Of a stretch of DNA of 64,000 nt, positions 780-30,673 are shown in pieces. Each line of letters begins with the position of its first letter. The stretch's first letter is position 1. The stretch is from Urbifossiella limnaea (GTDB lineage: Bacteria; Planctomycetota; Planctomycetia; Gemmatales; Gemmataceae), in assembly GCF_007747215.1 (NCBI RefSeq), contig NZ_CP036273.1, forward strand, positions 4,138,322 to 4,202,321, read 5' to 3'. Under the pieces are notes generated by a model that saw only the letters and a program-made list of their open reading frames with translations, had not been told where the DNA came from and did not search any database. Both the position numbers and the translations under genes were made by a program.

Positions 780-1912
780 ATGTCACCCACTTCCGACTCA
801 CTGGTCGCCGCGTTCCGCCAACTCACGGACCCTCGCCACCGCCGTGGTGTCCGCCACCCGTTCGCGGGGTTACTGTCCGTCGTCTTCCTGGGGCTGCTGA
901 GCCGGCACCCCGACTTCGCCTCCCTCGCCCGGTGGGCCAAGCGGCACTGGCCGGCCCTCCGGGAGGCGTTCGGGCTGACCCGCCCGTACGCCCCGCACGC
1001 GACGACCTACAGCCGCGCGGCCGCCGCCTTCTCGATCGACGAGTTCCGCGGCGCCCTGGCCGGGTGGCTCGCCCGGGTGATGGCCGACGCCCCGACCGCG
1101 GCCGCGGTGGACGGGAAGACGAGCAAGCAGGCCCACGACGCCGACGGCGACCCGATCCACGTCCTCAACGTGTTCGCCCACGACGCCCGGGTGTGCCTGG
1201 CCGACTGGCCGATCGGGGACGGGAAGGAGACCGAGCCCGAGGTCCTCAAGGCCCACCTGGACGAGTTGTTCGCCGCCTGGCCGTCGCTCCGGGTGCTGAC
1301 CGGGGACGCCCTGTTCTGCCAGCGCCCGCTGGCCCGGGCGATCGTCGAGGCCGGGCGGGACTACGTGCTGGCGGTCAAGGACAACCAGCCCGACCTGCAC
1401 GAGACGATCCGGGCCGCGTTCGCCGACGCCACCCCGGCGTCGGCGAGCGCGACGGCGCGGGGAAAAAACGCGGGGCGGTCGAGACCCGGCGGGTCTGGTG
1501 CGACGCGGCGACGGCGGACTACGCCCGCGAGGCGCTGAACGTCCCCGGCCTGCGGGCGGTCGTGCGGGTGGACCGGGAGACCCGAGGGGCCGACGGCGCC
1601 CGGACGTGCGAGACGCGGTACTTCGCCACCAGTCTCGACCCGGCCGTGGTGACCGCCGCCGCGTTGCTCCGGCTCGTTCGCGGGCACTGGTCGGTGGAGA
1701 ACAGCCTGCACTTCGAGAAGGACCGGTGGTGGGACGAGGACCGGCACGTGTGCCGCCGGCCGGGGTTGGCCGAGCGCTTCACGACCCTGCTGAGCGCGGC
1801 CGTGAGCGTGTTGCGGGTACTCAACCCCGGGGGTAAGGGCGAGCCGCTCAAGGCGCAAGCCGACGCCCTCAACTGGGACATCGAACGCGCCATCAACCTC
1901 ATGACCCGCTGA
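780..1912 (+). CDS. ISAs1-family DDE transposase (needs a -1 frameshift)
   Basis: The first frame starts at ATG 780, with GGAG upstream. It carries the family N-terminus (LTDPRHRRGVRHP) and two catalytic aspartates, in AAVDGK and LTGDAL. It alone would run to a stop at 1536-1538 in unrelated sequence. The conserved C-terminal part, with RRVW and the catalytic glutamate segment WSVENSLH, lies in the -1 frame and ends in TGA at 1910-1912. Shifting at 1463-1469 gives a 377-residue protein, the usual family length. Either the shift is programmed, or the gene is damaged or misassembled at the A6 tract. Unshifted product lacks the third catalytic residue. Confidence 0.85.
1463..1496 (+). other. Candidate -1 frameshift site: slippery heptamer plus hairpin
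   Basis: In the upstream reading frame 1463-1469 reads A_AAA_AAC, a canonical X_XXY_YYZ heptamer. Twelve bases downstream, AGACCC (1482-1487) and GGGTCT (1491-1496) form a 6-bp stem with a 3-base loop. A -1 slip here joins exactly the two transposase halves. The spacing is longer than the usual 5-9 bases, so hairpin stimulation is uncertain. Confidence 0.55.
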
Positions 1913-28717: not shown

Positions 28718-29132
28718 CGGAAACTCCACAGGAACGGGGTGCGGTGGAAACACGAGGAGGCAACTCTCCCGGCCGGGCAGTCCGACCGCGGTCCTCTCGT
28801 CTGTCGGGCGGGCACCGAGCGAACCGACGCCGCCCACGCCTCACATGACCCAACCGCACCGGACTTATTCCCGGAAAAATCCCCCGGCAGTCGCATTTTT
28901 GCCGGTGGGGCCAGAGTACAGGTTCGAAGCGACCGGCATCAGCGCGCCCAAGATTCGACCCGACAGATGGTTACGATCCGTTGCACCGAGAAGCCGGCTC
29001 AACTGTCGCCTTTTCGATTCCGCGGAATGTTCGCCCTCCGCCACCGTGTCGGCTGAAGAGGAAACCCGTGCGGGCGAACATTCTCGGGAATAAAGTGCCC
29101 GGGTTCGGGTTCCCACAATGTAGGGTGGTGTG
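28718..29132. other. 415-bp intergenic region with inverted repeat, upstream of an ECF sigma gene
   Basis: No convincing gene is present. A 12-bp inverted repeat (GAATGTTCGCCC at 29025-29036 and its inverse at 29072-29083) is separated by 35 bases. GGGAATAA lies at about 29086-29093 facing the sigma gene and again on the minus strand at about 28865-28872 facing the small lipoproteins. It could be an ECF-type -35 element, but no matching -10 was found. Confidence 0.4.
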
Positions 29133-29648
29133 ATGGGCTCAGCTGTCGGCCTGCACCAGCTGATCGACGAGCACTATCAGGGGCTGTACCGCTACGCGTA
29201 CCGCCTCGCCGGCGCAGCGGCCGACGCCGAAGACCTGACCCAGGAGGCCTTCCGCAAGGCGATCGACCGGCTGCCCCAGCTCCGCGACCCGGACCGTGCC
29301 AAGGCTTGGCTCTACCGCATCTTGCGGAACGCCTACCTGCACCGCGTCCGCGACGCCAAGCGGCACCGGACAGTTCCCCTTGACGCCGTGGGGGATTTCG
29401 CGGAGCGTGCGCCGGCGGAGCCACCGGACATCGAGCCGGCCCGGCTACAGGAGGCACTCGACGACCTGGACGAGGCGTTCCGTACGCCCCTGATTCTGTT
29501 CCATTTCGAGGAGTTCAGCTACGCCGACATCGCCGAGCAGATGGGTATTCCCATCGGCACCGTGATGTCCCGAATCGCCCGCGGGCGGGCTTACCTTCGC
29601 ACACGGCTGGCGCCAACCGCCGCGAACGGCACCCACCCGCCGACCTGA
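29133..29648 (+). CDS. ECF-type RNA polymerase sigma factor
   Basis: The 171-residue protein has sigma region 2 (LIDEHYQGLYRYAYRLAG... AEDLTQEAFRKAI, in pieces) with the RNA polymerase-binding pattern, and region 4 with a helix-turn-helix (YADIAEQMGIPIGTVMSRIARGRAYL). There is no region 1.1 or 3. The start is ATG 29133; a GTG at 29130 directly precedes it. It lies 39 bases upstream of a zinc-finger anti-sigma factor, the standard arrangement for ECF control. The inverted repeat in the preceding gap may take part in autoregulation. Confidence 0.9.
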   Translation: MGSAVGLHQLIDEHYQGLYRYAYRLAGAAADAEDLTQEAFRKAIDRLPQLRDPDRAKAWLYRILRNAYLHRVRDAKRHRTVPLDAVGDFAERAPAEPPDIEPARLQEALDDLDEAFRTPLILFHFEEFSYADIAEQMGIPIGTVMSRIARGRAYLRTRLAPTAANGTHPPT

Positions 29649-29687
29649 GCGTACACTCTCTCCGCGACGGCGCGAAACGTTGGATTT

Positions 29688-30407
29688 ATGGACTGCCGCG
29701 ACGCTCACTACTTTCTGCGACTCCGCCGCCCCGGGTCCGACGACCTGGACCCGGACGCGATGGCTTCCCTCGACCGCCACTTGGCCTGTTGCCCGGCCTG
29801 TGCCGCGGCCGGTCGGGCGCTCGCCGGCTTCGACGCGGCAGTCGGCCGCGCCATGCGGGCCGTGCCGGTCCCCGACGGGTTGCGCGACCAGTTGTTCACT
29901 GAAGCTTCCGTCCGTCGCGGAGCCGCGCTGCGGCGTAGGACCTTCCGGTTGCTCGCCGCCGCCGCGTCGGTGTTGGTGACGTGCGGATTGGCGCTCGGCG
30001 TCTACTCCGCGGCGCGACCCCAGGCAGACGTTGCGGGGATGCTCGCCCAGGGCGACGAACTGGCGATGCCGCAGGGGGCTGAAAAGCAGATCTCGGCATT
30101 CCTGAAGTCTCAGCGGCTGCCGGAACCTCCCCCACTCGACCCGAGCCTGTTCATCCACGCCGGTACCGAGTCGGTGCAGGGTCGAGACGTACCGGTGCTC
30201 GTCTTCCGGGAGCGGAACGGCCCCGGGGTGGCGAAGGTGTACGCCTTCCGCGCCACGTCGTTCAAGTTGGACGCCCTCCGCGAGGAACAGGCGTCGCACT
30301 GCTCGACGAAATTGTACGCCCACCCAGCGGCCGGTGTCACCTACGTGGTCGTCTACACCGGCATGGACCTGACGCCGTTCCTCCGCGGCGGCGGCGGGAC
30401 TGCCTGA
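29688..30407 (+). CDS. Zinc-finger anti-sigma factor, membrane-anchored
   Basis: The 239-residue protein has a ZAS-type cytoplasmic N-terminus: His31, Cys35 and Cys38 form H-x3-C-x2-C, with Cys3 as a possible fourth zinc ligand. A transmembrane helix follows (about 87-107, FRLLAAAASVLVTCGLALGVY), then an extracytoplasmic region of about 130 residues. It would bind and hold the neighbouring ECF sigma factor until a signal releases it. The outer domain is unlike a known sensor, but has a C-terminal beta-rich stretch with one free Cys (ASHCSTKLYAH). It is downstream of the sigma gene on the same strand. Confidence 0.85.
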   Translation: MDCRDAHYFLRLRRPGSDDLDPDAMASLDRHLACCPACAAAGRALAGFDAAVGRAMRAVPVPDGLRDQLFTEASVRRGAALRRRTFRLLAAAASVLVTCGLALGVYSAARPQADVAGMLAQGDELAMPQGAEKQISAFLKSQRLPEPPPLDPSLFIHAGTESVQGRDVPVLVFRERNGPGVAKVYAFRATSFKLDALREEQASHCSTKLYAHPAAGVTYVVVYTGMDLTPFLRGGGGTA

Positions 30408-30434
30408 CCCCCGACTCACATCAAAGATGCATCT

Positions 30435-30673
30435 ATGACCATCGACCTGACCTACTGCGCGGCGTGAGGTTACGAGCCGAAGGCCGTCAGTTTGGCGGCC
30501 AAGGTGCTCACCGCGTACAAGCAGAAGCTTCTGAGCCTGCGGCTGATCCCGTCTCACGCGGCGGCTGCTTCGAGGTGGTCGTGAACGGCGAACTCGTCTA
30601 CTCGAAGCTGGCGACCGGCACCTTCCCCGCCGAGGACGAAGTGGTGAATGCCGTCGGCGAGCGGCTCAAGTAA
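30435..30673 (+). pseudogene. SelW/Rdx-family thioredoxin-like gene with in-frame UGA and a frameshift
   Basis: ATG 30435 begins MTIDLTYCAA, then TGA (30465-30467), then GYEPKAVSLAAKVLTAY. If TGA encodes selenocysteine this is the C-x-x-U redox site of the Rdx (SelW-like) family. The C-terminal half, GGCFEVVVNGELVYSKLATGTFPAEDE, is also typical but lies in the -1 frame. One missing base near 30555-30566 is needed to join the halves. So there are two lesions, or one Sec codon and one lesion. A small hairpin lies 15 bases after the UGA. The stop TAA at 30671-30673 abuts the convergent regulator stop codon. Rdx proteins are probable thiol or selenol redox partners. Confidence 0.6.
30482..30500 (+). 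promoter_or_regulatory. Possible bacterial SECIS-like hairpin
   Basis: GGCCG (30482-30486) pairs with CGGCC (30496-30500) around a 9-base loop, TCAGTTTGG. The loop begins 19 bases after the UGA, within the distance seen for bacterial SECIS elements. Such a short GC stem can arise by chance in this genome. Confidence 0.25.

What the first reader, a model, noticed from the sequence alone, without database searches (positions are those of the whole stretch)
30435..30673. SelW-like gene with an in-frame UGA at the CxxU redox position and a -1 frameshift
The residues around the UGA (YCAA, then GYEPKA) match Rdx family selenoproteins with the CxxC/U motif. A hairpin lies 15 bases after the UGA. The C-terminal half continues in the -1 frame, so the gene is also broken once. 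Either it is a true selenoprotein with a sequencing error or recent loss, or a pseudogene with a nonsense change from Cys and a deletion.
Basis: partly seen in the sequence, partly recalled or inferred. Interest (0 to 1): 0.7.

Follow-up and report, generated by a model that had tools for sequence, protein, structure and literature searches.

The report
Selenoprotein W gene, frame-broken here
This is a small redox protein gene that uses the rare amino acid selenocysteine, of a kind common in planctomycete bacteria; the copy in this genome carries two extra bases that break its reading frame, which is either a recent mutation or an assembly error, so the finding is largely ordinary.

Summary
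Window 30435-30673 encodes a SelW-like (Pfam Rdx, PF10262) protein with an in-frame UGA at the second position of CxxU, and its C-terminal half lies in the -1 (equally +2) frame. The UGA is a selenocysteine codon, not a nonsense change. The genome has selA, selB, selD and tRNA-Sec and at least two other intact UGA genes, a Prx-like UxxC and an AhpD-like CxxU. Of 149 related genomes, 87 have the gene, nearly all with UGA at the same codon. A hairpin 14 bases after the UGA is conserved, and its loop forces a rare serine codon (AGT in 66 of 68 relatives there, 16 of 293 serine codons elsewhere in the same genes). The frame break is private to this genome: a net insertion of two bases near 30552-30560, not a deletion. 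There is no slippery heptamer and no sign of decay in the second half. It is therefore a very recent loss or an assembly error; no tool here can tell which. The gene follows an ECF sigma factor and an anti-sigma factor, an order shared across Gemmataceae.

The parts
30435..30557 (+). selW-like gene, N-terminal half in frame (MTIDLTYCAA-Sec-GYEPKAVSLAAKVLTAYKQKLLSLRLIPSH)
   Evidence: Rdx PF10262 match; 78% identity over the joined protein to nearest relative L020
30465..30467 (+). UGA read as selenocysteine, second position of the CxxU motif
   Evidence: TGA at this codon in nearly all relatives; Sec machinery in genome
30482..30500 (+). bacterial SECIS hairpin, 8 bp stem with 3-base GTT loop, 14 bases after the UGA
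   Evidence: Conserved pairing, 85% of cells in register against 20-46% when slid; invariant loop G; codon bias AGT 66/68; fold
30552..30560 (+). site of the frame break: net +2 bases relative to the nearest relatives (tandem TCTC or CGCG)
   Evidence: Codon alignment with L020, L022, L038; tandem dinucleotides
30560..30673 (+). selW-like gene, C-terminal half in the -1/+2 frame (GGCFEVVVNGELVYSKLATGTFPAEDEVVNAVGERLK, stop TAA)
   Evidence: Rdx PF10262 match; coding HMM segment 30569-30668
30582..30584 (+). TGA at codon 50 that ends the original frame after the break; as sequenced the product is 49 aa
29130..29648 (+). ECF sigma factor, start of the conserved gene order sigma - anti-sigma - selW
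   Evidence: Sigma70_r2 and r4_2; order conserved in relatives
29688..30407 (+). anti-sigma-like protein with HxxxCxxC motif (DUF3379 match)

Best explanation
A genuine SelW-like (Rdx family) selenoprotein gene in a Gemmataceae planctomycete. SelB carrying Sec-tRNA binds the hairpin just after the UGA and inserts Sec as the second redox residue of CxxU in a small thioredoxin-fold oxidoreductase. In this record a private two-base insertion at about 30552-30560 throws the ribosome out of frame, so the product would stop at codon 50 without the second half of the fold. The break is a very recent loss-of-function mutation or an error in the assembly. Shown: Sec machinery, conserved UGA, conserved SECIS, private insertion. 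Inferred: Sec insertion in the cell, loss of function, and the redox role.
For: selB (370 bits summed), selA (543 bits) and selD (384 bits), all over their cut-offs, and tRNA-Sec with anticodon TCA in the same genome. Two other intact UGA genes in the genome. 87 of 149 relatives have the gene, almost all with one TGA at the same codon. SECIS pairing and loop conserved across 69 sequences, with both-sided changes at pair 20/32; AGT at codon 19 in 66/68 against 16/293 elsewhere. The two extra bases occur in no relative. dN of the second half between window and L022 (0.21) is no larger than between L020 and L022 (0.23). No slippery heptamer.
Against: No reads or second assembly of this species were available, so error and mutation cannot be separated. 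No expression or selenium-labelling data. An 80-residue gene gives little power to detect decay.
Confidence: 0.93

Rival explanations
1. The frame break is a real, recent mutation: the strain has just lost SelW while keeping other selenoproteins.
For: A two-base tandem duplication outside a homopolymer is not the usual long-read error (general knowledge). The coding HMM and Pfam checks show only one other candidate break in the 64 kb, a transposase. Other Gemmataceae genomes lack a detectable copy, so loss occurs.
Against: Second half shows no relaxed constraint. No independent sequence of this species.
Confidence: 0.5
2. The frame break is a sequencing or assembly error in a gene that is intact in the cell.
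For: Both halves are under normal constraint and together match the family over its full length. The site lies in a GC-rich repeat (CGCGGCGG).
Against: The lesion is two bases, not one, and not in a homopolymer. The surrounding genes are mostly unbroken.
Confidence: 0.43
3. Programmed frameshifting joins the two halves, a double recoding of one short gene (Sec at UGA plus -1 shift).
For: The -1 frame has no stop over the whole gene before its TAA, and both halves are constrained.
Against: No X XXY YYZ heptamer; no relative has the arrangement.
Confidence: 0.03
4. Old pseudogene with a Cys-to-stop nonsense change and a deletion.
For: Reads as two stops and a shift under the standard code.
Against: TGA shared with nearly all relatives, SECIS conserved, machinery present, and the indel is an insertion private to this genome.
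Confidence: 0.01

Closest known systems
Selenoprotein W (SELENOW)-like bacterial family, PF10262, CxxU (listed in PMC13188914 and PMC9312934)
   Same: Pfam Rdx domain, CxxU motif, SECIS immediately after the UGA, about 80 residues
   Different: This copy carries a private two-base insertion and cannot be translated through as sequenced
SelW-like genes of Gemmataceae and other Planctomycetota (e.g. L020, L021, L022, L038)
   Same: UGA position, SECIS, and in many Gemmataceae the upstream ECF sigma and anti-sigma genes
   Different: Those are intact in one frame
Planctomycete selenoproteins reported in PMC4807772
   Same: Planctomycetes with full Sec insertion gene sets, including Gemmata obscuriglobus
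   Different: The main text does not mention SelW

Membership tests
SelW-like / Rdx family (PF10262) | Significant match to the Rdx profile | tested here: met
   72 bits joined, cut-off 22.6; each half alone also over the cut-off
SelW-like / Rdx family (PF10262) | CxxC or CxxU redox motif near the N-terminus | tested here: met
   C8-A-A-U11
SelW-like / Rdx family (PF10262) | One continuous reading frame apart from the Sec codon | tested here: not met
   Net +2 bases at about 30552-30560 in this copy only; relatives intact. It is a broken descendant of the family as sequenced, not a different family
Bacterial selenoprotein gene | In-frame UGA conserved across orthologues | tested here: met
   Nearly all of 87 genomes
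Bacterial selenoprotein gene | SECIS hairpin just downstream of the UGA with a conserved loop G | tested here: met
   G in 69/69
Bacterial selenoprotein gene | selA, selB, selC, selD in the genome | tested here: met
Bacterial selenoprotein gene | Selenium in the protein | not testable with these tools
   needs 75Se labelling or mass spectrometry
Programmed -1 frameshift gene | Slippery heptamer before the shift | tested here: not met
   none found

The most novel reading that the evidence does not exclude
One short gene that is recoded twice, with Sec at the UGA and a ribosomal frameshift without a classical slippery site to reach the second half.
Probability: 0.03. Interest if true: 0.7.

Novelty: new member of a known kind. 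Interest (0 to 1): 0.25.

Why it matters
Automatic annotation would miss or split this gene. The survey shows the Sec form of SelW as the usual one in Gemmataceae. If the insertion is real, it is a snapshot of the loss of one selenoprotein in a genome that still uses selenocysteine elsewhere. The conserved order ECF sigma - zinc-type anti-sigma - SelW suggests, as an inference only, a thiol-stress-regulated operon.

Tried and rejected
The nonsense-from-Cys pseudogene: rejected by TGA in relatives and by the SECIS. Deletion as the lesion: rejected, since the nearest relatives align with a net +2 in the window; a one-base deletion would first need an extra codon that those relatives do not have. 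Programmed frameshift: no slippery heptamer. An Rfam scan of the window at gathering thresholds gave nothing, so the SECIS was tested by comparison instead. A phylum-wide pattern for double-UGA SelW was mistyped (TATRYTGA) and its zero count says nothing; the corrected pattern was run on the family. An AhpC-TSA match with TGA at G000:C1:2603561-2603836 was looked at (L116) but not resolved into a convincing selenoprotein.

Full report
Observation. The window lies in a 7.8 Mb single-contig genome (G000) whose relatives are Gemmataceae planctomycetes. At 30435 an ATG opens MTIDLTYCAA-UGA-GYEPKAVSLAAKVLTAYKQKLLSLRLIPSH. The continuation GGCFEVVVNGELVYSKLATGTFPAEDEVVNAVGERLK lies in the -1 frame and ends with TAA at 30671-30673. 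Pfam Rdx (PF10262) recognises each half alone, with contiguous profile positions. A coding HMM trained on the window, without any knowledge of the family, also changes frame between 30549 and 30569.

The UGA is a selenocysteine codon. The genome has selB (370 bits summed), selA (543 bits), selD (384 bits) and a tRNA-Sec with anticodon TCA. It holds at least two other intact UGA genes with the UGA at redox motifs: a Prx-like protein with WUPYC (L106) and an AhpD-like protein with CFYU (L117). In 149 related genomes 87 have a SelW match, and the matched copies nearly all carry a TGA at the same codon. The exceptions among the matches listed are G010 and a second, distant copy in G066.

SECIS. 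A hairpin GGCCGTCA-GTT-TGGCGGCC starts 14 bases after the UGA. Across 69 distinct sequences the pairs in register are 85% standard, against 20-46% when the 3' side is slid. The upper five pairs are kept in 67-69 of 69, pair 20/32 shows changes on both sides (CG, TA, GC), and the loop G is invariant. The codon test is the strongest: serine at codon 19 is AGT in 66 of 68 relatives, while AGT is 16 of 293 serine codons elsewhere in the same genes. The protein alone does not require this.

The frame break. Against the closest relative (L020, 78% protein identity) and L022 and L038, the window has two extra bases between CCG and GGCGGC. Of 68 relatives, 56 keep exactly 29 residues from YEP to the GG(C)F motif; the other 12 are in-frame variants 1-3 residues shorter. 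The site offers two tandem dinucleotides, TCTC and CGCG, so a simple slippage duplication is plausible. As sequenced, translation through the UGA would end at codon 50. The second half shows no excess of amino-acid changes, which fits a very recent mutation or an error. No slippery heptamer exists and no relative shares the arrangement, so programmed frameshifting is unlikely. Whether it is mutation or error is left open: about 0.50 to 0.43 in my judgement.

Surroundings. Upstream lie an ECF sigma factor (29130-29648) and an anti-sigma-like protein with HxxxCxxC (29688-30407). This order is conserved in at least nine other Gemmataceae loci, with roughly 80-135 bases between anti-sigma and selW. 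By analogy with redox-sensing zinc anti-sigma factors (RsrA, from general knowledge), SelW may belong to a thiol-stress operon. This is an inference.

Known context. SelW-like CxxU (PF10262) is a listed bacterial selenoprotein family (PMC13188914, PMC9312934), among the most abundant in marine metagenomes (PMC2398784), and noted for few Cys homologues in Sec-using bacteria (PMC1794560). Full Sec gene sets in Gemmata obscuriglobus are reported in PMC4807772. The case is a new, broken member of a known kind.

Noticed in passing
L098, L099, L100/L047 (three Gemmataceae genomes, two genera); L090 (gammaproteobacterium), codons 8 and 11: SelW-like genes with UGA at both redox positions (UxxU). Reviews list this family only as CxxU with one Sec (PMC13188914, PMC9312934). 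Two species of genus g18 share it despite synonymous differences; 3 of 95 family genomes match the exact pattern.
   Followed up: partly
L101 / L074 (G010): SelW relative with GGT (Gly) at the Sec codon while the rest of the protein is intact: a CxxG form, possibly a loss of Sec.
   Followed up: no
window 29130-30673; L020, L021, L024, L032, L033, L038, L045, L046, L049: Conserved gene order ECF sigma - HxxxCxxC anti-sigma - SelW across Gemmataceae, suggesting a redox-regulated operon.
   Followed up: partly
window 801-1906: DDE_Tnp_1 transposase split over two frames near 1434; either a frame-broken or a frameshifted insertion element.
   Followed up: no
L106 1243-1989 and L117 (G000:C1:3999225-3999461): Two other probable selenoproteins of the same genome: Prx-like UxxC (WUPYC) and AhpD-like CxxU (CFYU).
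   Followed up: partly
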